Positions 4,701 to 46,869 of a stretch of 64,000 bases of DNA are shown here, one piece after another. The translations under genes were made by a program, and so were the position numbers. The stretch is from contig NZ_PYSY02000002.1 in assembly GCF_003049685.1 (NCBI RefSeq), forward strand, positions 372,001 to 436,000. Direction: 5' to 3'. Every line of letters starts with the position of its first letter. The first letter of the stretch is position 1. Below the pieces are notes generated by a model that searched no databases, was not told the origin of the DNA, and saw only the letters and a list, made by a program, of their open reading frames with translations. Source of the DNA: Brucella pituitosa. GTDB taxonomy: Bacteria > Pseudomonadota > Alphaproteobacteria > Rhizobiales > Rhizobiaceae.

Positions 4701-5436
4701 CCGGGTTGGTAATATCTATATCAATCGCAACGTTATTGGTGCGATTGTGGGCGTCCAGCCTTTCGGTGGCCGTGGTCTGTCCGGCACGGGCCCGAAGGCT
4801 GGCGGTCCACTCTATCTCGGTCGCCTTGTCGAAACAGCGCCAATCCCGCCGCGTATGGCTTCGGTCCATACCGATGCAGCGCTCAACGATTTCGCAAAGT
4901 GGCTTGGCAATCGCGGTATGAACGAACTGGCGCAGGCCGCTCGTGAAACCGGCAGTGCTTCTGCTCTTGGTTTGAATATCGAGCTTCCGGGTCCGGTTGG
5001 TGAACGCAACCTCTATGCGCTTCATGCGCGTGGTCGCATTCTTTTGGTTCCACAGACTGAAATCGGGCTCTATCGTCAGCTGACAGCGGCACTCGCCACT
5101 GGCAACGAAGCCGTGATCGATGAAGCTTCAGGCTTGCGCAATGTTCTGAAGGACTTGCCTTCAAGCGTCGCTGCGCGTGTTGTCTGGACAAAGGACTGGC
5201 AGGCAGATGCGCCTTTCGCCGGTGCGCTTGTTGAAGGAGAGGGCGAACGCCTGACCGACATCAACAAGAAGTTGGCAGCCCTTCCAGGTCCGCTCGTGCT
5301 GACACAGGCAGCAACCTCGGCGCAGCTAGCTCAGAACGCCGATTGCTATTGCCTGAGCTGGCTGCTTGAAGAGGTTTCGACCTCCATCAACACAACTGCT
5401 GCTGGTGGCAATGCGAGCCTGATGGCAATCGGCTGA
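1753..5436 (+). CDS. putA: Bifunctional proline dehydrogenase / glutamate-5-semialdehyde dehydrogenase PutA
   Basis: 1227 residues. PutA oxidises proline to pyrroline-5-carboxylate with FAD and then to glutamate with NAD, channelling the intermediate. The proline dehydrogenase barrel shows RLVKGAYWDAEIKRAQ near residue 363. The aldehyde dehydrogenase domain (about 570-1050) shows ISPWNFPLAI, ETGGQNAM and the catalytic Cys838 in SAGQRCSALR. The C-terminal ~180 residues match the extra domain of long PutAs. There is no N-terminal ribbon-helix-helix as in E. coli PutA, so it is probably not an autorepressor; the divergent Lrp-type protein likely controls it. A hairpin terminator follows directly. 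Confidence 0.97.
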   Translation: MTDKVSAHTAPVFQSFAPPIREQGPLRKAITDAYRRPEAECVTALVQQATLPEETTKQIRATARKLIEALRAKHKGTGVEGLVHEYSLSSQEGVALMCLAEALLRIPDMATRDALIRDKISNGDWKSHVGGGRSLFVNAATWGLVVTGKLTNTVNDSGLSAALTRLIARCGEPVIRRGVDMAMRMMGEQFVTGETIDEALKRAKSLEERGFRYSYDMLGEAATTAADAERYYKDYETAIHAIGRASAGRGIYDGPGISIKLSALHPRYVRAQSERVMTELLPKVKALAALSKKYNIGLNIDAEEADRLELSLDLLQSLIEDPDLAGWEGIGFVVQAYGKRCPFVLDFIIDLARRNNRRVMVRLVKGAYWDAEIKRAQVDGLEDFPVYTRKVHTDVSYIACAAKLLGARDVIFPQFATHNAQTLATIYHLAGPDFKTGSYEFQCLHGMGEPLYDEVVGPSKLGRPARIYAPVGTHETLLAYLVRRLLENGANSSFVNRIGDKSVSVDELIADPVEVVRSMAVVGARHDQINLPEGLYGIRKNSAGFDLSNEEQLAELSETLKANASRAWTAEPQVAGAKVKGESRPVLNPGDHSDVVGTVTEIAADDVAKAMKAAEKAVASWSQVSPADRAACLDRAADIMQREMAELLGLIMREAGKSMPNAIAEVREAIDFLRYYAEQTRRTLGVAHKPLGPIVCISPWNFPLAIFTGQIAAALVAGNPVLAKPAEETPLIAAQGVRILHDAGIPADALQLLPGDGRIGAALVAAQETCGVMFTGSTEVARLIQAQLASRLLPNGKPIPLIAETGGQNAMIVDSSALAEQVVFDVIGSAFDSAGQRCSALRVLCLQEDVADRILSMLKGALKELSIGRTDQLKVDIGAVITAEAKDIIEKHVQTMRDMGRKVEQLPLGPETGKGTFVAPTIVEIDSLRDLKREVFGPVLHVVRYKRDDMDRLIDDINATGYGLTFGLHTRLDETIAHVADRIRVGNIYINRNVIGAIVGVQPFGGRGLSGTGPKAGGPLYLGRLVETAPIPPRMASVHTDAALNDFAKWLGNRGMNELAQAARETGSASALGLNIELPGPVGERNLYALHARGRILLVPQTEIGLYRQLTAALATGNEAVIDEASGLRNVLKDLPSSVAARVVWTKDWQADAPFAGALVEGEGERLTDINKKLAALPGPLVLTQAATSAQLAQNADCYCLSWLLEEVSTSINTTAAGGNASLMAIG

Positions 5437-5454
5437 TAAGCCTTTACAATGTTT

Positions 5455-5486
5455 AAAAAAAAGGCGACCTTCGGGTCGCCTTTTTT
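5455..5486 (+). terminator. Rho-independent terminator of putA
   Basis: Stem AAGGCGACC / GGTCGCCTT with a stable TTCG tetraloop, preceded by a run of A and followed by six T. It lies 19 bases after the putA stop. Confidence 0.93.
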
Positions 5487-5489
5487 ATG

Positions 5490-5619
5490 TTCTGCACAAA
5501 CTTGCAAAGCTGTGCAGAAACAGAATTATTAGATCGTTTCCAGAATTTTCAGAATGAAATTTACAAAAGCAGATTGACACATAAGTGTAAAAAGCAAAGA
5601 CTGTGCACAGGCTTGCAAA
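5490..5619. promoter_or_regulatory. Repeated candidate operators upstream of the AfuABC-like operon
   Basis: Bases 5490-5519 form an inverted repeat with perfect 9-base arms, TTCTGCACA and TGTGCAGAA, around a 12-base spacer. The 15-mer GCACAAACTTGCAAA at 5494-5508 recurs with two changes as GCACAGGCTTGCAAA at 5605-5619, where it overlaps the perfect palindrome CTGTGCACAG (5601-5610). Both copies lie in the only gap upstream of the binding-protein gene at 5659. This looks like paired binding sites for one regulator; the regulator is unknown and the sites differ from the RpiR sites of the inositol genes. Confidence 0.5.
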
Positions 5620-5658
5620 AAAGCCGCAGCGTGGAGGCGCTGATCATAGGGAGGAATA

Positions 5659-6687
5659 ATGATGCGTTGGGCACTTACGGCCGCGGCATTTGCCGCTGGC
5701 GTTTCATCATTTGCGGTTTCTGCACAGGCTTCTGGCAATCTCAATCTCATCTGTTCGGCAGACGTTGTGATCTGCGAGCAAATGAAGAATAATTTCGAGA
5801 AAGAAACGGATATCAAGGTCAATATGGTGCGCCTGTCTTCTGGCGAAACCTATGCGAAGGTTCGTGCCGAAGCACGCAATCCGAAGACCGATATCTGGTG
5901 GGCAGGTACTGGCGATCCGCATTTGCAGGCTGCATCCGAAGGGCTGACGCTCGAATATAAATCGCCAATGCTCGACCAGTTGCAGGATTGGGCGAAGAAG
6001 CAGGCAGAAAGCTCTGATTTCCGCACTGTCGGCGTTTATGCTGGTGCGCTCGGTTGGGGCTACAACACCGACATCTTCAAGAAGAAGAACCTGAAGGAAC
6101 CGGCCTGCTGGGCCGATCTGCTTGATCCGTCCTATAAGGGCGAAATCCAAATGGCTAACCCGAATTCATCCGGGACAGCCTATACGGCTCTTGCCACTCT
6201 GATACAGTTGATGGGCGAGGAAAAGGCTTTTGAATATCTGGCAAAACTCAATGCCAATGTTTCGCAATATACCAAGTCGGGATCTGCACCGGTAAAGTCG
6301 GCTGCGCGCGGTGAGAATGGTATTGGTATTGTGTTCATGCATGATGCGGTTGCAATGACTGCTGAAGGTTTCCCGATTAAGTCAATCGCACCTTGCGAAG
6401 GTACGGGCTATGAAATCGGTTCCATGTCGATCATCAAGGGCGCCCGCAACCTTGAAAACGCCAAGAAGTGGTATGACTGGGCTCTGACAGCCGAAGTGCA
6501 GTCAAAAATGAAGGATGCCAAATCTTTCCAGCTTCCGTCCAACAAAAACGCAGAAGTGCCGAAAGAGTCGCCGCGCTTCGAGGATATCAAGCTGATCGAC
6601 TACGACTTCAAGACCTATGGCGAACCGACCAAGCGCAAGGAAATCCTTGAACGCTGGGACAAGGAAATCGGCGCAAAGGCAAATTAA
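5659..6687 (+). CDS. AfuA-like periplasmic substrate-binding protein of an ABC importer
   Basis: 342 residues with a Sec signal peptide ending near SAQA (residue ~24). It belongs to the AfuA/FbpA-type binding proteins (SBP_bac_6/8-like fold), often annotated as iron(III)-binding. The region SSGETYAKVRAEARNPKTD and AGTGDPHLQAASEG is typical of AfuA. The adjacent tyrosine pair that coordinates ferric ion in FbpA proteins is absent; the equivalent stretch reads GIGIVFMHDA. Actinobacillus AfuA binds phosphorylated sugars, and the linked phosphatase supports a phosphorylated ligand here. Start chosen after GGGAGGAATA. First gene of an operon with the fused permease and the ATPase. Confidence 0.85.
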   Translation: MMRWALTAAAFAAGVSSFAVSAQASGNLNLICSADVVICEQMKNNFEKETDIKVNMVRLSSGETYAKVRAEARNPKTDIWWAGTGDPHLQAASEGLTLEYKSPMLDQLQDWAKKQAESSDFRTVGVYAGALGWGYNTDIFKKKNLKEPACWADLLDPSYKGEIQMANPNSSGTAYTALATLIQLMGEEKAFEYLAKLNANVSQYTKSGSAPVKSAARGENGIGIVFMHDAVAMTAEGFPIKSIAPCEGTGYEIGSMSIIKGARNLENAKKWYDWALTAEVQSKMKDAKSFQLPSNKNAEVPKESPRFEDIKLIDYDFKTYGEPTKRKEILERWDKEIGAKAN

Positions 6688-6732
6688 AGCTTCGCCATAT
6701 CGGCGACTAGCAATCCATTTTCGTTATCGACC

Positions 6733-6755
6733 CTCCCGCCGCTATCCGGCGGGAG
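6733..6755 (+). terminator. Intercistronic stem-loop after the AfuA-like gene
   Basis: Perfect 9-base stem CTCCCGCCG / CGGCGGGAG with loop CTATC, 45 bases after the binding-protein stop and 61 before the permease start. No U-tract follows, so it is better read as a partial attenuator or mRNA-stabilising hairpin than as a full terminator. Confidence 0.7.
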
Positions 6756-6816
6756 ATGGATAATTGTGTCCACTTTGCCCGCCATGAGCAAAAAATGAGC
6801 AGAAAAGCGGATAGAT

Positions 6817-9042
6817 ATGAAACAACACAATCGACGGCTTGATGTGGTTCTGGCGCTGGCTTTGGCTGCGTTCCTGATCCTGCCCTGGTATCGCATTGAG
6901 CAAGGCTTCTTCCGTTTCAGCTGGCTTGAAGGGTTTTTCAGTCAGGCCGAGAATGCTCCCGGTATTCTGCAAATATTCACTTATGGACGCCCCTGGCTCG
7001 CTGTTGTTGCGATACTGATGCTCTTATGTGGCTTTGCACGCTTTGTGATGTCCCCGGAAAAGCGGACATCCGTTCTGATTGGTGCAAGCCTTTTGGGCGC
7101 TGGCTTTCTCGCACTGCAAGGACTGGCAATCGGCTTCACCGGCTGGAACTGGACATTTACCGAGGCACTCTTCGGTCAGCTTGCCGATGGACAACCGGCC
7201 TTTGGTGCCGGAGCTGTGCTGACTGGTCTTTGTTTTCTGCTGATTTTTTCCTTCGCTCTTGCTGAACGCGGGGTGATGAAAGGCGATGGTTTTGTCGTTT
7301 CCTCTATCACGCTGCTCGTCGCATTGGTCAGCGTCTTTGTATTCTATCCGATCTTCAGCATGTTTGCAGGCTCCGTTCAGGATTTTGATGGTTCCTTCAA
7401 ACCGGATGGCTTCATCGGCAATATTCAGGATTCTTCGATCTGGAGTCTTGCCTGTGTGATCGGCGAGGGACGCTGCGGCGTTGCATGGCGCACGCTGTGG
7501 CTGGCGCTAATGACGGCAACCGGCTCCACAGTGCTTGGGCTTTCTTTCGCACTCGTCGCAACCCGCACAGGCTTTCCTTTCAAGAAGGGTTTGCGCATTC
7601 TCACAGTGCTGCCGATCATCACGCCACCATTTGTCATTGGTCTGGCGCTCACATTGCTGTTCGGTCGTGCTGGCGTGGTGACGGAGCAGATTTCCTACTT
7701 TTTTGGTGTTGAGCCGGGCCGCTGGCTTTATGGCCTTACGGGCATCTGGATCGCACAGGTGCTTTCCTTCACGCCAATCACCTTTCTGGTTCTGATCGGC
7801 GTTGTTGAGGGTGTTTCGCCTTCCATGGAGGAAGCATCGCAAACCCTGCGTGCTGATCGCTGGCGTACGTTCAATCGTGTTTCGCTGCCGCTCATGGCAC
7901 CGGGGCTGGCCAATGCATTCCTGATCGCCTTCATCGAAAGCATGGCCGATTTTGGCAATCCGATGGTGCTTGGCGGCAGTCACGGCGTGCTCTCAACCGA
8001 GATATTCTTTGCCGTTGTGGGCGCGCAAAACGATCCGTCGCGTGCTGCCGTGTTGGCTATCGTGTTGCTCTGCTTCACACTGTCGGCCTTTCTCATTCAG
8101 CGTCTGTGGCTGTCGGGCAAGAACTTTGCCACCGTCACCGGCAAGGGCGATTCAGGCATTCATGCCGGCTTGCCAAATGGATTGAAGATTGGCGTCTATG
8201 CCCTTGTTATTCCGTGGATGATATTCACGGTCGTTGTTTACCTGATGATCCTTATTGGCGGTTTTGTGCGTACATGGGGTCTCGATAATTCGCTGACATT
8301 CGATCATTATCGTCGTGCTTTCTCAGTTGCGTGGACCGATAGCGGCTTTGCCTGGACGGGTGTTGCCTGGAACTCGTTCTGGACGACGATGGAAATATCG
8401 CTGATCTCCGCACCGCTTACTGCCGCTGTCGGCTTGCTCACCGCATATCTGATCGTCCGGCAGCGCTTCTTCGGGCGCAGTGTGTTCGAGTTTGCACTGA
8501 TGCTGAGCTTCGCCATTCCGGGCACGGTTATCGGTGTCAGCTATATCATGGCTTTCAACCTCCCACCGCTTGAAATGACCGGCACGGCGCTGATCCTGAT
8601 TGCCTGCTTCGTGTTCCGCAATATGCCGGTTGGTGTGCGCGGTGGCATTGCAGCGATGAGCCAGCTCGACAAAAGTCTTGATGAAGCGTCGCTCACGCTG
8701 CGTGCGGGCAGTTTCCGTACCATCCGCAAGGTGATCCTGCCGCTTCTGCGTCCGGCCATTACAGCTGCACTGGTTTATTCCTTCGTGCGTGCCATCACAT
8801 CGATCAGCGCCGTGATCTTCCTTGTATCGGCGGAATACAACATGGCGACTTCTTATATCGTAGGCCTTGTCGAAAATGGCGAGTTCGGTGTGGCGATTGC
8901 CTACTCATCGGCACTCATTCTCGTAATGGTAGTTGTGATTGTCACCTTCCAGCTCCTTGTCGGTGAACGCCGATTGCGGCGCGAAAACCGCGTTGCCACG
9001 CACACGCCGATTAAAACCGTTCAACAGGAGAAAGCCGTATGA
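6817..9042 (+). CDS. AfuB-like fused ABC transporter permease
   Basis: 741 residues. Two binding-protein-dependent permease units are fused in one chain, as in FbpB/AfuB proteins. Each carries an EAA-type cytoplasmic loop for contact with the ATPase: EEASQTLRADRWRTFNRVSLPLMAPG near residue 340 and DEASLTLRAGSFRTIRKVILPLLRP near 625. At least twelve hydrophobic segments are visible. The N-terminal ~150 residues hold several extra membrane spans before the first conserved unit. The stop overlaps the ATPase start by four bases (ATGA), so the two are translationally coupled. Confidence 0.88.
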   Translation: MKQHNRRLDVVLALALAAFLILPWYRIEQGFFRFSWLEGFFSQAENAPGILQIFTYGRPWLAVVAILMLLCGFARFVMSPEKRTSVLIGASLLGAGFLALQGLAIGFTGWNWTFTEALFGQLADGQPAFGAGAVLTGLCFLLIFSFALAERGVMKGDGFVVSSITLLVALVSVFVFYPIFSMFAGSVQDFDGSFKPDGFIGNIQDSSIWSLACVIGEGRCGVAWRTLWLALMTATGSTVLGLSFALVATRTGFPFKKGLRILTVLPIITPPFVIGLALTLLFGRAGVVTEQISYFFGVEPGRWLYGLTGIWIAQVLSFTPITFLVLIGVVEGVSPSMEEASQTLRADRWRTFNRVSLPLMAPGLANAFLIAFIESMADFGNPMVLGGSHGVLSTEIFFAVVGAQNDPSRAAVLAIVLLCFTLSAFLIQRLWLSGKNFATVTGKGDSGIHAGLPNGLKIGVYALVIPWMIFTVVVYLMILIGGFVRTWGLDNSLTFDHYRRAFSVAWTDSGFAWTGVAWNSFWTTMEISLISAPLTAAVGLLTAYLIVRQRFFGRSVFEFALMLSFAIPGTVIGVSYIMAFNLPPLEMTGTALILIACFVFRNMPVGVRGGIAAMSQLDKSLDEASLTLRAGSFRTIRKVILPLLRPAITAALVYSFVRAITSISAVIFLVSAEYNMATSYIVGLVENGEFGVAIAYSSALILVMVVVIVTFQLLVGERRLRRENRVATHTPIKTVQQEKAV

Positions 9043-10100
9043 CTATGATCCGTCCCGGCTCCGTTACCTTTCAAAACGTCACCAAGAAGTTTGGTAATTT
9101 CACCGCTCTGCCTGATCTGTCGCTGACAGTTGAACCCGGCACACTTGTGACCTTGCTCGGCCCGTCCGGTTGCGGCAAAACCACGACCCTGCGCCTTCTG
9201 GCGGGGCTGGAGCATCCTACATCGGGTCGCATTCTGATCGGTGGCAAGGATGTGACCATGCTCCCTGCCAACGAGCGCGATGTATCGATGGTGTTTCAAT
9301 CCTATGCTCTTTTTCCGCATATGAGCTCGCTCGACAATGTTGCCTATGGGCTTGAATCTTCGGGACTGAAGAAGAAAGAAGCGCGTGAGCGGGCCGAAGA
9401 AGGGCTGAAGCTCGTGGGCCTTGCAGGCATGGGGCATCGCCTTCCTGCAGAACTGTCCGGAGGGCAGCAACAGCGTGTCGCAGTTGCCCGTGCATTGGTG
9501 CTGGAGCCACAGGTGTTATTGCTCGATGAACCGCTGTCCAATCTCGACGCGCGGTTGCGTCGTCGGGTGAGAACCGAGATCAGAGAACTACAGCAAAGAC
9601 TTGGTTTCACAGCAGTTTATGTTACCCACGACCAAGATGAAGCTTTGGCAGTATCCGATACAATTATTGTCATGAAAGACGGCGATATAGCGCAGCAAGG
9701 CAGTCCGCGTGATCTTTATGAGTCGCCTGCATCTGCCTTCATTGCAGACTTCATGGGTGAGGCAAATGTCGTGCCCTGTGAAGTCATCAGTGCAGCAAAT
9801 GGAGAAGCTGTTATTCGTATCGGGAAACTCGAGCACCGTTTGGCATCGGCAAAGGCAAAGCCGGGGCCGGCCCAATTGGCGGTTCGTCCCAATGCGGTGA
9901 GCCTGCAAGCCCAGAGTGGCGGAGACTTCCCCGGACGCGTGGCACATTCCGCTTATCTTGGTGATCATATTGAATATGAAATTGAGACTGAGCACGGCAA
10001 GCTTTTCATTGTCGATCAGGCGGTGGAAGAGGCGCTTGCACCACAAACCGACGTGGCGATTCATTTCAAGCCGCGCGGCCTTGCCATCATCAACAATTGA
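9039..10100 (+). CDS. AfuC-like ABC transporter ATP-binding protein
   Basis: 353 residues. Walker A GPSGCGKTT (about residue 41), Q-loop FQSYALFPH, signature LSGGQQQRV, Walker B LLLDEPLSNLD and the switch His in VTHDQDEAL are all present. A C-terminal TOBE-type extension (about 240-353) fits the Fe3+/polyamine/sugar-phosphate importer class. It energises uptake by the fused permease upstream and overlaps it by ATGA. A second ATG lies six bases further in. Confidence 0.92.
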   Translation: MTMIRPGSVTFQNVTKKFGNFTALPDLSLTVEPGTLVTLLGPSGCGKTTTLRLLAGLEHPTSGRILIGGKDVTMLPANERDVSMVFQSYALFPHMSSLDNVAYGLESSGLKKKEARERAEEGLKLVGLAGMGHRLPAELSGGQQQRVAVARALVLEPQVLLLDEPLSNLDARLRRRVRTEIRELQQRLGFTAVYVTHDQDEALAVSDTIIVMKDGDIAQQGSPRDLYESPASAFIADFMGEANVVPCEVISAANGEAVIRIGKLEHRLASAKAKPGPAQLAVRPNAVSLQAQSGGDFPGRVAHSAYLGDHIEYEIETEHGKLFIVDQAVEEALAPQTDVAIHFKPRGLAIINN

Positions 10101-10145
10101 GCGCATGAACCTTGCGCCTTTATTCCCTCTGACTGGAAACCAAGC

Positions 10146-11006
10146 ATGACATCGGACATTTCAATAGAACTTGAAACGCGGTTTAAGCTTGCGCAGGAAA
10201 TTGCGCGTGAGGCAGGCGCTATGGCGCTCGATTACTTCAATCGCCGCGAAACACTTGTGATCGAAATTAAACGTGATCCGCAGGATGTGGTGTCCATTGC
10301 TGACCGCAATGTCGAACAGCTGATCAATGAGCGCGTATCGGCAGCTTTCAGCGACGATGGCTTTCTGGGTGAAGAATATGGACTGAATGCGGGCAGCTCA
10401 GGCTATACATGGGTGGTTGATCCCATTGATGGCACCAGTCCGTTCGTCAATGGAATGCCGAACTGGTGCGTTTCCATTGCGGTTCTCAAAGATGGTGAGC
10501 CGGTCATCGGTGTTATTCAGGCACCTTGCTTTGGTGAGCTTTACGCATCTGCCAAAGGGCAGGGTGCAACACTTAATGGCAAAAAGCTGGCGCTTGATCC
10601 ATCTCGCAATATCCGTAATTCGGTGACCGGCATCGGCGCTAACAATTATGTAACGCCGCAGGTGGTTGCGAAGATCGTGGAAGATCTGCTTGAAGCGGGC
10701 GGCACATTCATCCGTAATGGTTCCGGTGCGCTTATGATCGCCTATGTCGCGGCCGGGCGTCTGGTTGGCTATTATGAGCCATATATGCATGCATGGGACT
10801 GCATGGCCGGTTTCTGCCTCGTTAAGGAAGCAGGCGGCTATGCGCATCCTTTCCCGACGGAGGGTGAGCAACTGACCAAAGGCAACAAGGTGTTTGTAGC
10901 GGCGCCCGGTGCAATCGATGATCTTAAAAAAGATTGCCCGACTGTAAGAAATAAGCCCCGGAAATCCGGGGCTTATCTTTATGACGACGGATTATCGCGC
11001 TTATAA
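10146..11006 (+). CDS. Inositol-monophosphatase family phosphatase, 3' end probably frameshifted
   Basis: 286 residues as read. Signatures of the Mg-dependent, Li-sensitive phosphatase fold are present: GEEYG (metal Glu), DPIDGTSPFVNG (metal-binding DPIDGT) and WDCMAGFCLVKEAGG (second aspartate motif). Members dephosphorylate inositol phosphates, histidinol phosphate or sugar phosphates. It starts 45 bases after the AfuC-like gene, so it is probably the last gene of that operon. The last ~20 codons run through a terminator hairpin. Removing one A from the A6 run at 10926-10931 would end the protein as DDLKKIARL with a stop at 10945-10947, just before the hairpin, which looks like the ancestral end. 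Confidence 0.85.
   Translation: MTSDISIELETRFKLAQEIAREAGAMALDYFNRRETLVIEIKRDPQDVVSIADRNVEQLINERVSAAFSDDGFLGEEYGLNAGSSGYTWVVDPIDGTSPFVNGMPNWCVSIAVLKDGEPVIGVIQAPCFGELYASAKGQGATLNGKKLALDPSRNIRNSVTGIGANNYVTPQVVAKIVEDLLEAGGTFIRNGSGALMIAYVAAGRLVGYYEPYMHAWDCMAGFCLVKEAGGYAHPFPTEGEQLTKGNKVFVAAPGAIDDLKKDCPTVRNKPRKSGAYLYDDGLSRL
10951..10976. terminator. Bidirectional terminator between the phosphatase gene and iolB
   Basis: Perfect 12-base inverted repeat ATAAGCCCCGGA / TCCGGGGCTTAT around two A. It lies between two convergent genes once both are corrected for their frame problems: phosphatase stop at 10947 and iolB stop at 10979. Confidence 0.85.
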
Positions 11007-11795
11007 ATCCAGTCATGATCCGGGTGGTTTTTGAACCGCCATTTGCGGATCGGACCAGCCATGACGTTGAGATAATACATTTCATAGCCGTAAGGCGCGC
11101 CGCAGGGGGTGATGTCCCTTTGGCACGAGAACTACATCGCCGTCAGAAACGGCCATGGTTTCATCAAGACTGCCATCTTCGGTGAAAACCCGCTGAATAC
11201 CATAGCCCTGCGATGGGTTGAGGCGATGATAATAGGTTTCTTCCAGATATGTCATATCCGGGAAGTTATCTTCATCGTGCCGATGAGGCGGGTAGGATGA
11301 CCAGTTGCCCTGCGGCGTGAATACTTCCGTCACCAAAAGGCTGTCGGCGACATCGCGACCTTCCATAGCAATATTGAAGATATTGCGGGTGTTGGCACCT
11401 TGGCCGCGCGTATCGAAAGTCAGGCCTTCAGGTCCAAGTTTTTGGGCGTTGCGACCTGGTTTGCCGGGTGCTGCGCAGACAGCAAGCACGCAATCGGTTG
11501 TCGCCACGGCACCCCAGTCGCTCTCAGCAGGCACATAGAGACAATGCGGGGCGAGCTTTTCAAACACGCTCATCCGTTCGCCCATTTCGCCGAAATCCTC
11601 GCCAGAAGCCTTGAGCTTTGCCTTGCCTTCGACCAGCACCAGAATGACTTCGCGGTCGCCGGTTTTCTCGGTCGCGGTTTCACCTGCTTTCAGACGATAG
11701 AGGCCAAAGCCGACATAGCCCCAGTTGGCACTTTCCGGCGTGATGTCATGCACCTTGCCATGCTTGCCATTGGGTTTGCGTAACAGATTGGCCAT
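10979..11795 (-). pseudogene. iolB: 5-deoxy-glucuronate isomerase IolB, frame disrupted near the 3' end
   Basis: IolB converts 5-deoxy-glucuronate to 2-deoxy-5-keto-gluconate in inositol breakdown. The open frame (11082-11795, 237 residues) carries the IolB cupin with SSYPPHRHDEDN and EETYYHRLNP, then ends abnormally as VPKGHHPLRRALRL. Dropping one base from the G5 run at 11105-11109 restores HHPCGAPYGYEMYYLNVMAG and a tail ending KNHPDHDWIYKRDNPSS with a stop at 10979-10981, about 271 residues, the family's usual length. The lost tail is the most conserved part of IolB, so this is either a base-calling error or a real disabling mutation. Last gene of iolC-iolD-iolE-iolB; the start is 3 bases from the iolE stop. 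Confidence 0.88.
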
Positions 11796-11798
11796 GGC

Positions 11799-12701
11799 TC
11801 AGTCTCCCTTATCGAGTCCTGCTTCGCGCGCAAATGCTTTGAGCGATTTCAGCCCCAGTGTCTGATATTCAAATGGATTACGCACATCGGGGTCTTGCTC
11901 TGCTTCGATGACCAGCCAGCCCTGATAGCCGTGCTGGGCTGCGACCTTGAGTACTGGTACAAAATCCACGCCGCCCTCCTTATCGCCCGGAACCGTGAAA
12001 ACGCCGCGGCGCACACCTTCCAGAAAGGACAGGCTCTGATCGCGCACTTCAGCAGCAATCGCCGGGCGTACGTTCTTCGCATGGATGTGGCGAACGCGTC
12101 CCATATGGTTCTTCGCAACACGCTCAGGATCGCCACCGCCAAACAGGCAATGCCCTGTATCAAGCAGCAGCTTGGCGTGTGGCCCGGTATGTTTCATCAG
12201 AAGGTCGATCTCGTCTTCGCTCTGAACAATCGTACCCATGTGATGGTGATAGACGAGTGCAATGCCCTGTGCGCTCGCATATTCGGCCAGTGCTTCAACG
12301 CCTGCACCAAACTCTGCCCAACGGGATTCTTCCAGAACGGCGCGCTCAGAGAGCGGCTTGTCATCGTCGCCATGAATGGCGTTCGATGTTTCGCAAACGA
12401 TGATGACCTTGCAGCCCATGGCCTTGAGAAGATCAAGCGCTGGCTGCATCGCAACCTTCTCATCCTCAACGGAATTGGTAAGAAGATTGAGCGAATGCCA
12501 GCCAGAAACGTAACGCAGATTGCGTGTTTCGAGTACTGCTTTAAGTTCCGCTGCAACCTGCGGAAATTTATGGCCTTTTTCAATTCCGTCGAAGCCGATT
12601 TTGGAAGCCTCATTGAGGCATTGATCAAGGCTTATATGTGCGCCGAGGCTGCGATCATCATCGTTCGACCAGGCAATCGGGTTGGTGCCATAGAGGATCA
12701 T
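11799..12701 (-). CDS. iolE: myo-inosose-2 dehydratase IolE
   Basis: 300 residues, full length. Belongs to the xylose-isomerase-like TIM barrel family. IolE dehydrates scyllo-inosose to 3D-trihydroxycyclohexane-1,2-dione. It opens with the characteristic [12 protein letters not shown], and metal-binding positions are seen in [20 protein letters not shown] and HIHAKNVR. The iolD stop lies three bases upstream, so the two are one transcript. Confidence 0.95.
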
Positions 12702-12704
12702 CGG

Positions 12705-14528
12705 TCAGTTTCTTTCTTTGATCTGAGCTTCATAATTTTCGCGTGCGGCACGCACTTGCTCGCGTTCCGAGACTTCCGGCACAGCCACGTCCCACCACCA
12801 GCCACCGGTTTCAGGCGTCGGATAAGGGTCGGTGTCGATAACGATAACTGTAGTGCGCGGGTTGTTGCGCGCCTCGGCCAGCGCATCTTCAAGTTCGCGG
12901 ATAGAGCCGACCTTTTTGCTGTCGGCACCCATCGCGCCCGCATGAGCTGCAAAGTCGATATTGGATGCGTTCACATGGGTTGTGTGGTCGAGCAGATTGT
13001 TGAACTCGGCACCACCCGTTGCCATCTGCAACCGGTTGATGCAGCCATAACCACGATTATCGGTGAGGACGACTGTGATCTTGATACCCATCATCACAGA
13101 GGTAGCAAGCTCGGAATTGGCCATCATGTAGGAGCCGTCGCCGATCATCACGATCACGTCGCGGTCAGGCTCTGCCATCTTGATACCAAGCCCACCAGCG
13201 ATCTCATACCCCATGCAGGAGAAGCCATATTCCATATGATAGGACATAGGGCGTCCGGCTTTCCAGAGCTGGTGCAATTCGCCCGGCATTGTTCCTGCCG
13301 CACACATGACGACGGTATTTTCTTTCGACTGGCGCTGCACAGCACCGATCACCTGCATATCGGTAGGAAGCTCGTTTGCCTCACCTGGGGCGACTGTGAA
13401 CCGGTCCGCCGCTTCAAACCATTTTGCCTTGAGGCTGCTGTCGAGAGATGGGCGTTTGTAGCCTTTTAATCCTGCAGAAAGCCCATTAAGGCCGACTTTT
13501 GCATCAGCCACGAGTGAGATAGAGCCATGTTTGTGACTGTCATAAGGTTGAACATTAAGGGAAAGCAGCTTGCGGTTCGGATGTTTGAACAGTGCCCATG
13601 AGCCGGTCGTGAAATCCTGAAAGCGCGTTCCGACACCGATCACCAGATCCGCATTTGCTGCAATCGCATTGGCAGAATCTGCACCCGTAACACCGACCGG
13701 GCCAAAATTGAGCGCATGATCCCACGGCAGTGCCGACTTACCAGCCTGCGTTTCGATAACAGGGATATTGTGGGTTTCTGCAAAGCTTTTCAGCGCGTCG
13801 TGGGCACCTGAATAATGGACGCCACCGCCTGCAACGATAACCGGGGTCTTGGCAGCCCTGATTGCGGCAATAGCAGTTGCCAGCTCGTGTTCATCGGCTG
13901 GCGGGCGTCGCCAATGCCAGACTTTTGGTGCGAAGAACTCTTCCGGCCAGTCATAGGCTTCTGCCTGAACGTCCTGACAGAAAGACAACGTCACTGGTCC
14001 ACAATCTGCTGGATCGGTCATTGTGCGGAAAGCGCGCGGCAGGGCTGTCAGAAGCTGTTCTGGACGGGTGATGCGATCAAAATAGCGGCTTACAGGGCGG
14101 AAACAGTCATTGACGGTCATCGTGCCGTCGTTGAAATCCTCGATCTGCTGAAGCACAGGATCAGGACCACGATTGGCAAAAACATCTCCGGGGATGAACA
14201 GAACCGGCAGGCGGTTAACATGGGCGAGTGCCGCCGCTGTGACCATATTGGTTGCGCCGGGGCCGATGGAGGAAGTGACAGCGCAAGCGCGTTTGCGACC
14301 GAGCTGTTTGGTATAGGCAATGGCTGCATGAGCCATGGTTTGCTCATTATGGCCACGCCATGTAACGAGCTGATCGCGGATACCATGCAGTGCCTCGCCA
14401 AGCCCTGCGACATTGCCATGGCCGAAAATAGCCCAGACACCAGCGATGAAGGGATCTCCTTCTGGCGTCATCTGATTGGCTATATAGCGCACAAGAGCCT
14501 GTGCCGCTGTCAGTCGAACGGTCTTCAT
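12705..14528 (-). CDS. iolD: 3D-(3,5/4)-trihydroxycyclohexane-1,2-dione hydrolase IolD
   Basis: 607 residues from the ATG at 14528, which follows GGGAGGAAAG; the frame is open further upstream but without a better start. Thiamine-diphosphate enzyme with the usual three domains. GDGSYMMANSELATS and DNRGYGCINRL form the TPP/Mg site. IolD opens the cyclic dione to 5-deoxy-glucuronate, the substrate of IolB. Second gene of the iol operon, about 70 bases after iolC. Confidence 0.95.
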   Translation of the reverse strand: MKTVRLTAAQALVRYIANQMTPEGDPFIAGVWAIFGHGNVAGLGEALHGIRDQLVTWRGHNEQTMAHAAIAYTKQLGRKRACAVTSSIGPGATNMVTAAALAHVNRLPVLFIPGDVFANRGPDPVLQQIEDFNDGTMTVNDCFRPVSRYFDRITRPEQLLTALPRAFRTMTDPADCGPVTLSFCQDVQAEAYDWPEEFFAPKVWHWRRPPADEHELATAIAAIRAAKTPVIVAGGGVHYSGAHDALKSFAETHNIPVIETQAGKSALPWDHALNFGPVGVTGADSANAIAANADLVIGVGTRFQDFTTGSWALFKHPNRKLLSLNVQPYDSHKHGSISLVADAKVGLNGLSAGLKGYKRPSLDSSLKAKWFEAADRFTVAPGEANELPTDMQVIGAVQRQSKENTVVMCAAGTMPGELHQLWKAGRPMSYHMEYGFSCMGYEIAGGLGIKMAEPDRDVIVMIGDGSYMMANSELATSVMMGIKITVVLTDNRGYGCINRLQMATGGAEFNNLLDHTTHVNASNIDFAAHAGAMGADSKKVGSIRELEDALAEARNNPRTTVIVIDTDPYPTPETGGWWWDVAVPEVSEREQVRAARENYEAQIKERN

Positions 14529-14599
14529 CTTTCCTCCCGGCGGAAATCCGCATTCTCGCAATCTCACAAGACAGGCCTCCACCTGTGCCAGAGATGCGT

Positions 14600-16501
14600 T
14601 TATTTCTGGCGCAGCCTATCCCAAAGATCGCAGAAACCGCGATAGCGTTTTGCCATTTCTGCAACTGCGTCGGTGTCGCTCATTTTGCCGGCGAGCCATT
14701 GGCGAGCGACATCGCCCAGAATGGTGCGGCCGATGGCAAAACCCTTCACCAGATCAAAATCCGCAGCGATTTTCAGGCTTGCTTCCAGTTCTTCGGCTGG
14801 CGCATCAAGCCCCAGCACAACAATGCCACGCGTGTGAGGATCGTTATGGGTGATCGCTTCGCAAGCATTGCGCCATGCCTTGGCAGTCTTCAGCGGCTCA
14901 AGCTTCCACCAGTCAGGATAAACGCCAATTTCGTAGAAACGCTCGATGACTTTGGCGGTGCTCATATCATCGACGGGCGCTACCTTGGATGGAATGACTT
15001 CTAACAGAAACTCGAGACGGTTGCGGCGAGCAGCCGTGAAAAGTCGCTTCACGGTGGCTTCCTGTTGTGCCTTCACGTTGGCGCTGTCATCAGGGTGATA
15101 GAAGCATAAAACCTTGACGACGTTCTCGACAGGCCATTCAACAAGGCCGCCGCAATCAGGACCGAGTTCAGGCTCAAGCTCCAAAGGGCGCGAGCTGGGC
15201 CATTCCGTTGGGCGTCCAATCCATAAGCCAGTCCCGGCGGCACGGTAGAGTGCATCGCGTCCAAGACGGCCATCGCAAAGAATGCCATAGCCGCTTTCTC
15301 CGCCTGAAACCTCTAACGCAGCATTCAGGCATAGTTCTTTGAATTCACCGATCTTTTCATCCGTAGCGCCGGTTTCCTGTGCCATTTCTTCCAGCTGGAT
15401 ACGGTGGTCAAAAGCGAAGACTCGCATATGTGGCCAGTCGCCATTGCGGTTGGTCGACCAATGCACCTGCTCAAGTGCCAGATCTTTGCGCAGCGCCTTG
15501 TCGCGAATGCCGGTCTTGAAGAAATATTGCAGCTCTTCCCAGCTTGGATAAGCGGGTGTGCAGCCATGACGCGACACTGCAAAGGCACCACAGGCATTGG
15601 CGAACTTCAGGCTGGTTGGCCAGTCTTCACCCTTGAGCCAGCCGCGCAACAGACCAGACATGAAGCCATCGCCCGCGCCAAGCACGTTGAAAACTTCAAT
15701 CGGAAAACCTTGTCCTGATTGCCCTTGGTCGAGATAGTCAGGAATGTCGCCCTCAAAGACCACGGCGCCCATTGGTCCGCGTTTGCAAACGAGTGCCGCC
15801 TTCGTGACTTTGCGAACGGCTTTAAGCGCTTCAACTGTATCGGTCGAACCGCCAGCAATATGAAATTCTTCTTCTGTGCCGACGATGAGATCGAAAAGGT
15901 GCAAGGTTGATTGCAGTTTGGTGGTGACGGAAGCAGACTCGATAAATCGGTTCTCGCCATCACCATGGCCGGAAAGCCCCCAGAGGTTGGGGCGATAATC
16001 GATGTCGAGCACCGTACGACTACCGTTTTCCCGCGCAAGCTTCAAAGCTTTGAGGACAGCAGCTTCCGTGCGCGGATGCGACAGATGCGTGCCAGTGGCG
16101 AGTACACATCCGGCCTCGGCAATGAAGTCCGGATCGATATCGTCTTCGCAAAGCGCCATGTCGGCGCAGTTTTCGCGATAGAAGATGAGCGGGAAATGTT
16201 CCTGATCACGGATGCCAAGGATCACCAGCGCTGTCAGGCGTTGCGGATCGGTGACGATACCGCGCGTATCCACACCTTCACGCGCAAGTTCACGCAGCAG
16301 AAAGCGCCCCATATGCTCGTCACCGACGCGGGTTATGAGTGCAGATTTGAGGCCCAGTCGAGCAGTGCCAGTCGCGATATTGGTGGGGGAGCCACCGACA
16401 TATTTGTTGAAGGATGACATGTCTTCAAGCAGACCGCCGACCTGTGCGCCGTAAAGATCCACCGAAGATCGGCCAATCGTAATCAAATCCAGCCGCTTCA
16501 T
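14600..16501 (-). CDS. iolC: Fused 5-dehydro-2-deoxygluconokinase / DUF2090 aldolase-type protein IolC
   Basis: 633 residues from the ATG at 16501, preceded by GGGAGGACTTTA. The N-terminal half (about 1-325) is a PfkB-family sugar kinase with the closing signature NVLGAGDGFMSGLLRG. It phosphorylates 2-deoxy-5-keto-gluconate. The C-terminal half (about 330-630) is a DUF2090 domain, which resembles class I aldolases and in rhizobia is annotated as the 5-dehydro-2-deoxyphosphogluconate aldolase step (IolJ function). No separate iolJ and no iolA is visible nearby, so the fusion plausibly covers the aldolase step here. First gene of iolCDEB. Confidence 0.93.
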   Translation of the reverse strand: MKRLDLITIGRSSVDLYGAQVGGLLEDMSSFNKYVGGSPTNIATGTARLGLKSALITRVGDEHMGRFLLRELAREGVDTRGIVTDPQRLTALVILGIRDQEHFPLIFYRENCADMALCEDDIDPDFIAEAGCVLATGTHLSHPRTEAAVLKALKLARENGSRTVLDIDYRPNLWGLSGHGDGENRFIESASVTTKLQSTLHLFDLIVGTEEEFHIAGGSTDTVEALKAVRKVTKAALVCKRGPMGAVVFEGDIPDYLDQGQSGQGFPIEVFNVLGAGDGFMSGLLRGWLKGEDWPTSLKFANACGAFAVSRHGCTPAYPSWEELQYFFKTGIRDKALRKDLALEQVHWSTNRNGDWPHMRVFAFDHRIQLEEMAQETGATDEKIGEFKELCLNAALEVSGGESGYGILCDGRLGRDALYRAAGTGLWIGRPTEWPSSRPLELEPELGPDCGGLVEWPVENVVKVLCFYHPDDSANVKAQQEATVKRLFTAARRNRLEFLLEVIPSKVAPVDDMSTAKVIERFYEIGVYPDWWKLEPLKTAKAWRNACEAITHNDPHTRGIVVLGLDAPAEELEASLKIAADFDLVKGFAIGRTILGDVARQWLAGKMSDTDAVAEMAKRYRGFCDLWDRLRQK

Positions 16502-16570
16502 TAAAGTCCTCCCTCGGCGCATGCTTTTTTAGCTTGAAGAGGCTGCCTGTGAGTCACGACACGCAGCAAC

Positions 16571-16627
16571 CATTCTATTTCTGATTAAAATGGATTTATT
16601 ATTCCATTTCAATCGAAAAATAGAATG
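16571..16627. promoter_or_regulatory. Nested operator palindromes upstream of iolC
   Basis: In the 136-base gap between the regulator stop and the iolC start lies GGAT-N6-TTCC (16592-16605), one base off the GGAA-N6-TTCC site described for the Sinorhizobium RpiR-type IolR. It sits inside AAATGGA-N8-TCCATTT (16588-16609). Outside that is a 10-base perfect inverted repeat, CATTCTATTT at 16571-16580 and AAATAGAATG at 16618-16627. Probable repressor site of the iolCDEB promoter. Confidence 0.6.
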
Positions 16628-16637: not shown

Positions 16638-17486
16638 TTACGACTGTCGTTCCGTGCCAACGGCGACGGCGAGCGTAATCGCAAGACAAAGTGTAGCGGA
16701 AAGAGAGCGGAAGGCACCGAAGTCAACTTCGGAGACAAGCAGCGACTCATTGGCAAACTTGCTCATTGGGCTGACAATCGTGTCGGTAATCGCAACAACA
16801 TCGATGCCGCGCGCGGCGGCATTTTCTGCCATGGCAATGGTTTCAGGCGAGTAGGGCGAGAACGAAATCGCGAGCAACACATCGCCTTTACGGATAGCGT
16901 GCTGGTTTTCCAGCTTTCCGACGGTACTGTGAAGCATGGCCGGAACCTGCATCTTTTCGAGCGCGTAGGCCAGATAGCTCGCAACCGGAAATGCGCGTCG
17001 AACGCCGATGATGTGAATGGTTTCTGCTGTTGCCAGCAGCTTGACGGCTTTCTCAAGTGCCTCCGGCTCGATGGTCTTCAACAGGCTTTCAAGTGAAGTG
17101 CGGCCGGCCTCGGCAAACTCTGCCAGAAGGGCCGGGGCGCTTCCTGCCGCCGTTTCGCGCAAATGCTCAAGCCGTGTGGAATAATCGGGCCAACCGCCAG
17201 CATAGGAGTCGCGAAAAAGCTTCTGCATTTCCGAAAAACCGGAAAAGCCCAATATCTGGCAAAACCGCATGAAGGCCGAACTTTGAACGCCTGCGCCTTC
17301 TGCCATTTCCGCGACCGTTGAAACGGCGATCCGGTCCTGATTGGCGGCAACGTAATCGGCGCATTGCTTCAGGCGCTTGGGCAACCGGTCAGCAACTTCG
17401 AGCAGTCTTGCCTCGAATTCTTTTGCATTCGCGGGCACACTGGCGGAAGTCTCGGCTTGCGCAGCAACAGCTTGTTCGGTGTCCAT
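16638..17486 (-). CDS. iolR: RpiR-family regulator of inositol catabolism (IolR-type)
   Basis: 282 residues from the ATG at 17486, chosen because GAAAGG lies seven bases upstream; the frame also offers ATGs 6 and 36 bases earlier. An N-terminal HTH_6 domain (STVAEMAEGAGVQSSAFMRFCQILGFSGFSEMQ) is followed by a C-terminal SIS sugar-phosphate-binding domain (IIGVRRAFPVASYLAYALEK, LLAISFSPYSPETIAMAENA). In Sinorhizobium the RpiR-type IolR represses iol genes until a pathway intermediate binds. It sits between iolC and divergent iolG, with candidate sites on both flanks. Confidence 0.85.
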   Translation of the reverse strand: MDTEQAVAAQAETSASVPANAKEFEARLLEVADRLPKRLKQCADYVAANQDRIAVSTVAEMAEGAGVQSSAFMRFCQILGFSGFSEMQKLFRDSYAGGWPDYSTRLEHLRETAAGSAPALLAEFAEAGRTSLESLLKTIEPEALEKAVKLLATAETIHIIGVRRAFPVASYLAYALEKMQVPAMLHSTVGKLENQHAIRKGDVLLAISFSPYSPETIAMAENAAARGIDVVAITDTIVSPMSKFANESLLVSEVDFGAFRSLSATLCLAITLAVAVGTERQS

Positions 17487-17542
17487 TGCCATCCTTTCAG
17501 AAACGGTCTCTTGACATCCCATATATCACAATCTAGCAAAAT

Positions 17543-17556
17543 AGAATAAATATTCC
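17543..17556. promoter_or_regulatory. Candidate IolR operator between iolR and iolG
   Basis: AGAA-TAAATA-TTCC, one base off GGAA-N6-TTCC, within the near-palindrome TAGAATAAATATTCCA. It lies 57 bases from the chosen iolR start and 104 from the iolG start. It resembles the site upstream of iolC (TGGATTTATTATTCCA). Confidence 0.55.
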
Positions 17557-17659
17557 ATTGAGCTTTGCATCCGTGACATATTCGGGAAATGAGCAGAACG
17601 GAATAGCGAAACTGATTTGTCGGTCAATCGAGGATGGCCGTTTTGGGAGGATGAAGGCA

Positions 17660-18664
17660 ATGGTTACACGTCTTGCTCTGCTTGGTGCCGGTCGTATCGG
17701 AAAAGTACATGCGGGCGCAATCGCTTCCGACAAGCGGGCGCAACTGATTGCGGTGGCTGATGCCAATCAGGATGCAGCGCGTGCAATTGCTGATGCGGCT
17801 GGTGCGGAAGTGCGTTCCATTGACGAGATCGAAAAGTCGCCAGATGTGGACGCTGTGCTGATCTGCACTCCAACCAACACCCATGCCGATCTGATCGAAC
17901 GATTCTCACGCGCAGGTAAGGCGGTTTTCTGCGAAAAGCCGATTGATCTCAATATCGAGCGCGTACGGGCTTGCCTTGGTGTTATCAAGGAAACCGGCGG
18001 CAAGGTCATGCTCGGCTTCAATCGCCGTTTTGATCCGCATTTTGCCGCTGTTCGTAAGGCGATCAATGATGGTCGTATTGGCAAAGTCGAAATGGTCACA
18101 ATCACCAGCCGCGATCCGGGCGCTCCGCCTGCGGAATACATCAAGGTATCGGGTGGTATTTTCCGCGATATGACGATCCATGATTTTGACATGGCGCGTT
18201 TTCTGCTCGGTGAAGAAATTGCAACGGTTTCTGCATCTGCTTCGGTTCTTGTCGATCCAAAGATCGGTGAACTCGGTGATTATGACAGTGCGAGCGTCAT
18301 CCTGACCACGGCTTCCGGTCGCCAGTGCGTGATTTCCAATTCACGCCGTGCATCCTATGGCTATGATCAGCGCATCGAAGTGCACGGATCGGAGGGAGCG
18401 GTTTCGGCTGAGAACCAGCGTCCGGTTTCCATCGAGGTTGCATCGAAGGATGGCTATACGCGTCCACCACTGCATGATTTTTTTATGACCCGCTACACAG
18501 ATGCGTATGCCGCAGAAATTGCAGCTTTCATTGATGCGATTGATAGTGGCAAAGCACCCACACCTTCTGCCGAAGATGGTTTGCAGGCTTTGGCACTTGC
18601 CGAAGCAGCACTTCTCTCTGTCAAAGAAGGGCGTGCTGTGAAAGTTGCGGAAGTTCTCGCCTAA
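17660..18664 (+). CDS. iolG: myo-inositol 2-dehydrogenase IolG
   Basis: 334 residues. First step of the pathway: NAD-dependent oxidation of myo-inositol to scyllo-inosose. Gfo/Idh/MocA family with N-terminal nucleotide fold LALLGAGRIGKVHAGAI, the catalytic EKPIDL lysine motif and the conserved GGIFRDMTIHDFDMARFL helix. The ATG at 17660 is preferred because GGGAGG lies ten bases upstream. The frame is open from 17558, but the ATG at 17651 is too close to that ribosome site. Divergent from iolR. Confidence 0.93.
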   Translation: MVTRLALLGAGRIGKVHAGAIASDKRAQLIAVADANQDAARAIADAAGAEVRSIDEIEKSPDVDAVLICTPTNTHADLIERFSRAGKAVFCEKPIDLNIERVRACLGVIKETGGKVMLGFNRRFDPHFAAVRKAINDGRIGKVEMVTITSRDPGAPPAEYIKVSGGIFRDMTIHDFDMARFLLGEEIATVSASASVLVDPKIGELGDYDSASVILTTASGRQCVISNSRRASYGYDQRIEVHGSEGAVSAENQRPVSIEVASKDGYTRPPLHDFFMTRYTDAYAAEIAAFIDAIDSGKAPTPSAEDGLQALALAEAALLSVKEGRAVKVAEVLA

Positions 18665-34552: not shown

Positions 34553-34717
34553 CATTCTTTCGCTCTCTTCCATCCGGACTTTAACCGTCGGCTCCGGCAT
34601 CTCACCGGATCTGCTGACCCTGAAACAAACCGCCGAATCGGCTTTCTGCTGCAGGCGCTCGCGGGCTCGAAGATCACTCTTCATACCGCCGGTGGGGAGT
34701 TTCACCCCGCCCCGAGA
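34553..34717 (-). promoter_or_regulatory. FMN riboswitch (RFN element) of ribH2
   Basis: Read on the minus strand the element begins GGGGCGGGGTGAAACTCCCC, then ACCGGCGGTATG, has the variable arm, then GGTCAGCAGATCCGGTGAGA, GCCGGAGCCGACGGTTAAAG and TCCGGATGGAAGAGAGC. These are the conserved P1-P6 blocks of the RFN aptamer in order. It ends about 70 bases before the ribH2 start. There is no strong terminator hairpin in that gap, so control of translation initiation is more likely than premature termination. Confidence 0.96.
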
Positions 34718-46799: not shown

Positions 46800-46813
46800 T
46801 TTTTTGTTTTTAC

Positions 46814-46858: not shown

Positions 46859-46869
46859 TGAACCACAAT

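What the first reader, a model, noticed from the sequence alone, without database searches (positions are those of the whole stretch)
5490..11006. AfuABC-like importer with a phosphatase beside the inositol genes: probable uptake of a phosphorylated cyclitol or sugar
Seen: binding protein, fused permease, ATPase and an inositol-monophosphatase-family enzyme lie in one direction, immediately next to iolBEDC. The binding protein lacks the adjacent Tyr-Tyr ferric site, whereas the other AfuA/FbpA relative in this window (29089) has it at 217-218, so the two should not share a substrate. Known: Actinobacillus AfuABC carries phosphorylated sugars. Inferred: the importer brings in an intact phosphorylated cyclitol or sugar, the phosphatase removes phosphate, and free inositol enters the Iol pathway. 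This would be a phospho-inositol salvage unit mislabelled as an iron importer.
Basis: partly seen in the sequence, partly recalled or inferred. Interest (0 to 1): 0.72.

Follow-up and report, generated by a model that had tools for sequence, protein, structure and literature searches.

The report
Phosphorylated sugar importer beside inositol genes
A soil bacterium related to Ochrobactrum carries an importer usually labelled as an iron pump that instead looks built to bring in a phosphorylated ring sugar or inositol phosphate, with a partner enzyme that would strip the phosphate off; several related bacteria place the same importer beside inositol-degradation genes.

Summary
In detail: window 5659-11006 encodes a binding protein, fused permease, ATPase and inositol-monophosphatase-family enzyme, convergent with iolBEDC. 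The binding protein is an AfuA relative (PDB 4r72-75, E 4.6e-90). It keeps AfuA's His-Asp-Glu sugar triad and phosphate-site residues, 16 of 19 pocket positions, and lacks the ferric Tyr-Tyr. 'Iron importer' is very unlikely; 'phosphorylated ring sugar or cyclitol' is well supported. The phosphatase accompanies the transporter in 77 of the 80 nearest named loci; in a wider sample 47 of 82 loci have an IMP-family or HAD phosphatase within five genes.

Inositol phosphate is plausible, unproven. Of 65 other genomes holding both genes, 7 have iolD within 10 kb (0.41 expected), in six genera; in one, an exact IolR-type box heads an SDR-IolG-phosphatase-importer operon. Against this, the window's importer faces iol convergently, has no such box within one mismatch, and carries LacI-type operator-like sites; most near orthologues lie away from iol. 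Pocket changes T11D, G36S, I186S suggest a ligand other than AfuA's. Verdict: AfuABC-family variant with a dephosphorylation step; reader partly supported.

The parts
5659..6687 (+). AfuA-type periplasmic binding protein (apparent signal peptide, 342 aa); pocket S33 D35 S60 S61 G62 G83 T84 Y127 S171 G172 T173 S207 G208 S209 F226 H228 D229 E252 Q291
6817..9042 (+). fused permease, two BPD_transp_1 modules (741 aa)
9039..10100 (+). ABC ATPase with TOBE domain (353 aa); overlaps the permease stop by 4 bases
10146..11006 (+). inositol-monophosphatase-family phosphatase; GEE, DPIDGT, WD motifs and E211 invariant in 11 of 11 aligned
5460..5486. terminator-like hairpin after putA (seen by eye; not listed by the scan)
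5492..5508 (.). LacI-type operator-like site (1 mismatch to TTGCAN6TGCAA)
5574..5579 (+). TTGACA, -35-like, present in all 18 aligned upstream regions (not part of a promoter listed)
5602..5619 (.). second LacI-type operator-like site, degenerate left half
5626..5642 (+). leader stem-loop with TGGAGG loop; stem varies with pairing kept among relatives
10955..10972. hairpin between the convergent phosphatase and iolB (not listed)
11082..11795 (-). iolB (possible frame change near its 3' end in this assembly)
11799..12701 (-). iolE
12705..14582 (-). iolD
14600..16522 (-). iolC fused to the aldolase domain
16592..16605 (.). IolR-like box (1 mismatch) upstream of iolC
16638..17522 (-). RpiR-type regulator, IolR-like (named by reading its sequence and position; no family search run on it)
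17543..17556 (.). IolR-like box (1 mismatch) between the regulator and iolG
17651..18664 (+). iolG, inositol 2-dehydrogenase (432 bits, cut-off 355)

Best explanation
An AfuABC-family importer of a phosphorylated ring sugar or cyclitol, coupled to its own phosphatase. The binding protein grips the phosphate with Ser/Gly/Thr loops (S61-G62, T84, S171-G172-T173, S207-G208) and the ring hydroxyls with H228, D229 and E252; the fused permease and ATPase bring the intact ester into the cytoplasm; the IMP-family phosphatase releases phosphate and a free polyol or sugar, which can feed catabolism (the Iol pathway next door is the likeliest sink). The cassette probably has its own promoter under a LacI-type regulator. 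Shown here: gene content, homology, pocket residues, conservation of the cassette in near relatives, recurrent iol linkage. Inferred: the ligand class (from pocket residues), import of the intact ester, and the phosphatase acting on it.
For: Best PDB matches are AfuA (4r72-75, E 4.6e-90), 8x1a (2e-87) and the pyridoxal-phosphate binder P5PA (6wce, 8.1e-74), far ahead of ferric HitA (6.8e-8). AfuA contacts from PMC4546632 and PMC8427247 map 16 of 19 identical; His-Asp-Glu in 120 of 129 SBPs, phosphate-site set in 110 of 129, YY in residues 200-240 in 0 of 129. SBP-permease-ATPase-phosphatase in 77 of the 80 nearest named loci; in 82 order/class loci an IMP-family (42) or HAD (6) phosphatase within five genes in 47, the IMP gene downstream, upstream or divergent; a different HAD follows the ATPase in L083. 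iolD within 10 kb in 7 of 65 genomes with both genes, expected 0.41 (model); at least 5 changes of iol linkage forced on the SBP tree. L069: exact GGAAN6TTCC box before SDR-IolG-phosphatase-SBP-permease-ATPase. L217: IolG-SDR-SBP-permease-ATPase co-directional. UgpB-like gene (organophosphate uptake) in 17 of 80 named loci, 14 of them over 80% identical to the L136 one and starting just after the phosphatase.
Against: No ligand was measured. In 35 of 82 order/class loci no IMP or HAD hit lies within five genes (L083 among them has a HAD the probe missed). iol genes are near in only 10 of 80 named loci, six of them in one group. The window's SBP promoter has no IolR-type box within one mismatch. 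A perfect such box sits at a rhizopine-type CUT2 binding-protein gene on another contig (344 bits, below its cut-off 420), so free inositol may have another importer; but that pattern gave 11 sites against 8 for the reversed control, so one site is weak. AfuA does not bind glucose-1-phosphate, whose phosphate, like that of inositol-1-phosphate, sits directly on the ring. A branch of the importer clusters with sugar-acid-type enzymes instead.
Confidence: 0.65

Rival explanations
1. It is a plain hexose/heptose-phosphate importer (G6P, F6P, S7P) like Actinobacillus AfuABC; iol neighbours are incidental and the phosphatase serves phosphate scavenging or relief of sugar-phosphate stress.
For: AfuA homology and triad; S. 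meliloti, which carries an 84% orthologue on pSymB, grows on D-glucose-6-phosphate as carbon source (PMC4207669, section 8); LacI-type operators; most near orthologues away from iol; a MASE1-domain protein and a response regulator beside the Vibrio nigripulchritudo homologue (likeness to UhpB/UhpA is recalled).
Against: The position of AfuA T11 is not Thr in any of the 129 SBPs scored, and G36S and I186S also differ in the window; G6P and F6P enter central metabolism without dephosphorylation, so a conserved phosphatase is unexpected; iol linkage exceeds the uniform-placement expectation.
Confidence: 0.25
2. It imports another small phosphorylated or phosphonate compound (2-aminoethylphosphonate, glycerophospho-compound, pyridoxal phosphate).
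For: TIGR03261 (2-AEP binding) is the best NCBIfam match of the SBP, 219 bits; PhnU2 is the best of the permease and PhnT2 the second of the ATPase; P5PA is a close homologue; Ugp genes nearby in rhizobia.
Against: All three AEP models are missed (219 of 392.75; 271.2 of 593.25; 377.2 of 457.7); P5PA has Ala at the Asp and Glu positions of the triad, which are kept here.
Confidence: 0.1
3. It is a ferric-ion importer as annotated.
For: ATPase best matches the ferric ATP-binding model PRK11432 (387.6 bits, cut-off 496); public annotation calls the permease 'iron ABC transporter permease'; iron- or haem-uptake genes within several kb in 3 of 10 annotated regions.
Against: No Tyr-Tyr site; the AfuA match is about 80 orders of magnitude better than the best ferric binder.
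Confidence: 0.02

Closest known systems
AfuABC of Actinobacillus pleuropneumoniae (PDB 4r72-4r75; PMC4546632)
   Same: SBP family by sequence, His-Asp-Glu sugar triad, phosphate-loop residues, permease plus ATPase partners
   Different: three pocket positions (T11D, G36S, I186S), companion phosphatase, LacI-type operator-like sites, iol neighbours
P5PAB pyridoxal-phosphate importer (6wce; PMC8427247)
   Same: SBP family, phosphate loops, Tyr127 and His228 equivalents
   Different: P5PA has Ala at the Asp and Glu positions of the triad; those are Asp and Glu here
S. meliloti SMb20362-SMb20365
   Same: orthologous cassette: phosphatase 62, ATPase 63 and SBP 65 are so named in passages of PMC12542648; SBP 84% identical; same 19 pocket residues (L097)
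   Different: divergent LacI-type gene, no iol gene in the 25-kb locus L097
IMP-family phosphatases (SuhB/IMPase, HisN, CysQ)
   Same: PF00459, metal-site motifs, Glu just before the WD motif as in 2pcr, 5zhh and 6tqn (read from the alignments)
   Different: below the NCBIfam cut-offs (HisN 164.7 of 275.15; inositol-1-monophosphatase 131.1 of 332), so its substrate is not set by family

Membership tests
AfuABC sugar-phosphate importers | SBP homologous to AfuA over full length | tested here: met
   residues 25-337, E 4.6e-90
AfuABC sugar-phosphate importers | sugar triad His205-Asp206-Glu229 | tested here: met
   H228 D229 E252; 120 of 129 homologues
AfuABC sugar-phosphate importers | phosphate-site residues S37 G38 T60 S148 G149 T150 G185 | tested here: met
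   S61 G62 T84 S171 G172 T173 G208
AfuABC sugar-phosphate importers | complete AfuA contact set (19 positions), expected if the ligand is the same | tested here: not met
   16 of 19; T11D, G36S, I186S
AfuABC sugar-phosphate importers | binds G6P, F6P, S7P with nanomolar affinity | not testable with these tools
Ferric FbpA/HitA binding proteins | adjacent Tyr-Tyr ferric ligands | tested here: not met
   no YY in the SBP; YY 217-218 in the 29089 protein
2-aminoethylphosphonate PhnS2/PhnU2/PhnT2 | NCBIfam equivalog cut-offs | tested here: not met
   219/392.75, 271.2/593.25, 377.2/457.7
Inositol-1-monophosphatase (equivalog) | NCBIfam cut-off of PRK10757 | tested here: not met
   131.1 of 332
Inositol_P superfamily phosphatase | PF00459 and metal-site motifs GEE, DPIDGT, WD | tested here: met
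   E 2e-54; motifs invariant in 11 of 11 aligned
IolR regulon member | GGAAN6TTCC-type box at the promoter (motif recalled) | tested here: not met
   none with up to 1 mismatch at 5437-5658; one sister genome (L113) has a one-mismatch site there whose aligned window site has two mismatches; exact box at the homologous operon of L069
LacI-type regulon | TTGCAN6TGCAA-type operator upstream of the SBP | tested here: inconclusive
   window best 1 mismatch; genus 6 exact and 11 one-mismatch of 20; named LacI-linked loci 41 of 41 exact; order LacI-linked 8 exact of 14; TCS-linked 0 of 30; shuffles 0 exact and 2 one-mismatch of 845; regulator gene not adjacent in the window, 41% homologue at G000:C2:475621

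The most novel reading that the evidence does not exclude
This is the first recognised dedicated bacterial importer of an inositol monophosphate (or a close cyclitol phosphate): a phospho-cyclitol salvage module made of an AfuA-family binding protein with a re-tuned pocket, an ABC pump and a partner phosphatase, which in several alphaproteobacterial lineages has been drawn to inositol genes and at least once into an IolR-boxed operon, letting cells use inositol phosphates freed from phytate or phosphoinositides without losing inositol or phosphate outside the cell.
Probability: 0.38. Interest if true: 0.72.

Novelty: new variant of a known kind. Interest (0 to 1): 0.5.

Why it matters
Many rhizobial and related genomes carry this cassette, and public records that I saw label its permease as iron transport, so nutrient models of these bacteria would gain a phosphate-ester uptake route and lose a false iron system. 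If the ligand is an inositol phosphate, it would give a direct bacterial entry route for products of phytate and phosphoinositide breakdown, and an assay in S. meliloti, where inositol catabolism is reported as key for competitive nodulation (only the title of that paper was seen, in a reference list).

Tried and rejected
Ferric import: rejected on pocket and homology. 2-AEP: rejected on curated cut-offs. Shared IolR operator in the window: looked for, not found at the SBP promoter within one mismatch. The IolR-type pattern with one mismatch is itself noisy: 37 sites in the window against 26 expected. Promoter and terminator scan of 5400-11200 found about as many sites as shuffles (8 against 4.7; 7 against 6.7) and listed neither the hairpins at 5460 and 10955 nor the TTGACA that I name. 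Literature for SMb20361-66: three papers; in two of them passages were seen, which give locus names, protein-level changes in a phaR study and a metabolic-model entry, no ligand; the third was seen in the listing only. The 2006 S. meliloti transportome paper is not held. AfuA + inositol + ABC transporter + phosphatase: only an Aspergillus paper; AfuA + Brucella + inositol: none; inositol-phosphate transporter terms or AfuABC: no bacterial inositol-phosphate importer among the 30 listed of 55 (titles and abstract starts only). Whether S. meliloti growth on G6P needs pSymB could not be read, because the italics of the table were lost. FbpA control was compared by eye and is incomplete because matches were cut from the listing: own genome 14.5 kb, next nearest seen G249 at about 30 kb. 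A DNA alignment of leaders used badly chosen coordinates and was not used. The leader count selected for GGAGG and at least four pairs, so loop invariance and pairing are partly by construction; its 33 versions include two chance-like ones (L048, L062). First gene calling by longest ORF was confounded by antisense frames and was replaced.
Full report
WHAT IS THERE. Window 5659-11006 holds four co-directional genes: binding protein (SBP), fused permease, ATPase and an inositol-monophosphatase-family (IMP) enzyme. Upstream is putA, followed by a terminator-like hairpin (5460-5486; not listed by the scan). Downstream, on the other strand and convergent, are iolB, iolE, iolD and the iolC-aldolase fusion, then an RpiR-type regulator, then iolG on +. 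The window lies on a 1.72-Mb contig of a 5.5-Mb assembly (contig length). The nearest named relative by the SBP is Brucella grignonensis OgA9a (98%), in the environmental Ochrobactrum part of the genus as GTDB draws it.

THE BINDING PROTEIN. Of 26 PDB sequences matched (E up to 0.01) the top three are AfuA (4.6e-90), 8x1a (2e-87) and P5PA (8.1e-74); the best ferric binder is at 6.8e-8. I took the AfuA contacts from Sit 2015 (PMC4546632, Results part 1 of 2) and Pan 2021 (PMC8427247, section 4). H205A, D206A and E229A each abolish G6P binding in AfuA; in the window these are H228, D229 and E252. The phosphate-side residues are kept. Differences are T11 to D35, G36 to S60 and I186 to S209. Of 129 SBPs from fetched loci, 120 keep His-Asp-Glu, 110 keep the phosphate set and 0 have YY in residues 200-240. 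None of them has Thr at the T11 position. One 19-residue set is shared by 30 of 91 rows, among them the window, all of L100-L118 and S. meliloti L097.

THE PHOSPHATASE. These are near relatives. In 82 wider loci, chosen by SBP alone, 42 have an IMP-family and 6 a HAD hit within five genes, 47 either, 35 neither. The IMP gene is downstream, upstream or divergent. In L078, L079, L080, L082 and L084, all of one genus (g73), a HAD hydrolase stands in its place; L064 has both; L083 of another family has a different HAD after its ATPase that the probe missed. Changing position and identity of the phosphatase argues that an imported ester is dephosphorylated inside, though less strongly than many independent replacements would. 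A UgpB-like gene is found in 17 of 80 named loci, in 14 of them over 80% identical to that of L136 and starting just after the phosphatase; the L136 proteins pass the UgpB and UgpA cut-offs (507.5 of 411; 371.9 of 335).

LINK TO INOSITOL GENES. Order sample: SBP in 64 of 297 genomes, IolD in 110 of 297. Class sample: SBP in 21 of 240, IolD in 31 of 240. Co-occurrence: order, 52 of 64 SBP genomes have IolD against 58 of 233 without SBP; class (own genome and G082 excluded), 14 of 19 against 15 of 219; genome size is an uncorrected confounder. Of 65 genomes with both (own excluded) seven have IolD within 10 kb of the SBP: G082, G112, G137 (a fragment), G249, G383, G386, G457. Uniform placement expects 0.41, P about 2e-7; for the six genera P about 4e-6. 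The model ignores that catabolic genes cluster. G296 and G559 have other iol genes adjacent with IolD on another contig; G242 has IolD at 16 kb. On an SBP tree of 110 rows, 22 labelled iol-linked, the label needs 10 changes, at least 5 forced by well-supported branches (quick tree). In L069 an exact GGAATGTTTGTTCC stands before SDR-IolG-IMP-SBP-permease-ATPase. GGAAN6TTCC as IolR motif is recalled; a conserved palindrome at iol and inositol-transporter promoters is described in PMC2597717 (passages). In L209 a one-mismatch site lies between SBP and phosphatase. In L217 IolG-SDR-SBP-permease-ATPase are co-directional with small gaps, with no box found there.

WITHIN THE GENUS. SBP in 29 of 35 genomes. 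In 22 of these 29, IolD (a fragment in G298 and G305) lies 6-8 kb away on the same contig; in G301, G303, G319, G323 and G326 it is on another contig, G318 is split over small contigs, and G300 has a different SBP (55%) with other neighbours. Paenochrobactrum (L137) shares the phosphatase-iolB junction.

REGULATION. The iolC and iolG promoters carry IolR-like boxes with one mismatch; the SBP promoter has none within one mismatch. One sister genome (L113) has a one-mismatch site there, the aligned window site has two. Near orthologues are flanked by a divergent LacI-type gene (42 of 80) or by a two-component pair (31 of 80), 8 by neither, one locus counted twice. All 41 LacI-linked named loci tested have an exact TTGCAN6TGCAA in the roughly 200 bases upstream of the SBP match, 0 of 30 TCS-linked ones do, and 8 of 14 SBPs of LacI-linked order loci do. 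Genus loci have such sites (6 exact, 11 one-mismatch, of 20) although no LacI gene is adjacent; a 41% homologue with nearly the same recognition-helix stretch lies about 98 kb away. So the importer probably answers to a LacI-type regulator. Elsewhere a perfect IolR-type palindrome sits between a rhizopine-type CUT2 SBP gene (344 bits, cut-off 420) and a Gfo/Idh-type dehydrogenase gene, a candidate free-inositol locus; the pattern found 11 sites against 8 in its reversed control, so this is weak.

READING. The importer class and a phosphorylated ligand are well supported; the phosphatase partnership is well supported near the window and partial further out; inositol phosphate is the best single candidate because of the recurrent iol linkage, but the window's own lineage leaves room for a hexose phosphate. 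S. meliloti, with an 84% orthologue, uses G6P (PMC4207669 section 8) by a route not identified in what I could read. Plain G6P import would not need a phosphatase and would be expected to keep AfuA's pocket; both points weigh against it without excluding it.

NOVELTY. Searches of open papers (capped listings, titles and abstract starts) showed no bacterial inositol-phosphate ABC importer; most subscription papers are not held. I rate this a new variant of the AfuABC kind with an unproven substrate.

Noticed in passing
window 5626-5642 and relatives (e.g. L037, L099, L100-L118): A leader stem-loop between the LacI-type site and the SBP ribosome site has a TGGAGG (SD-like) loop and stem versions that keep pairing (33 versions, two chance-like; selection required GGAGG and four pairs). 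Found in 29 of 41 LacI-linked and 0 of 30 TCS-linked named loci and in 20 of 20 genus loci. No Rfam match at gathering threshold in the window. Could be an sRNA or ribosome target.
   Followed up: partly
L038, L039, L043, L044 (46-49% to the window SBP); also L122, L123, L125: A second SBP sits just upstream of the first, beside a response regulator and sensor kinase; it may serve sensing or a second ligand.
   Followed up: no
L085, L088, L092, L119: A divergent branch of the importer lies with a mandelate-racemase-like enzyme, an isomerase-like TIM barrel, an IolG-like dehydrogenase and an alpha/beta hydrolase, suggesting another, sugar-acid-type substrate.
   Followed up: partly
L120, L121, L199-L202, L206, L207 (Pantoea, Erwinia, Enterobacter, Serratia): The LacI-SBP-permease-ATPase-phosphatase cassette occurs at 71-76% SBP identity in enterobacteria, in L120 and L121 on plasmids, which looks like horizontal transfer.
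   Followed up: no
G000:C1:1598333 (L233): Perfect IolR-type palindrome between a rhizopine-type CUT2 SBP gene and a Gfo/Idh dehydrogenase gene: candidate free-inositol uptake locus.
   Followed up: partly
window 10900-11110: Both convergent genes (phosphatase, iolB) may show frame changes near their 3' ends; relatives with uninterrupted frames exist. Not mended.
   Followed up: no
window 34558-34723 and 46718-46870: FMN riboswitch, and a Brucella sRNA CI27 family match.
   Followed up: no
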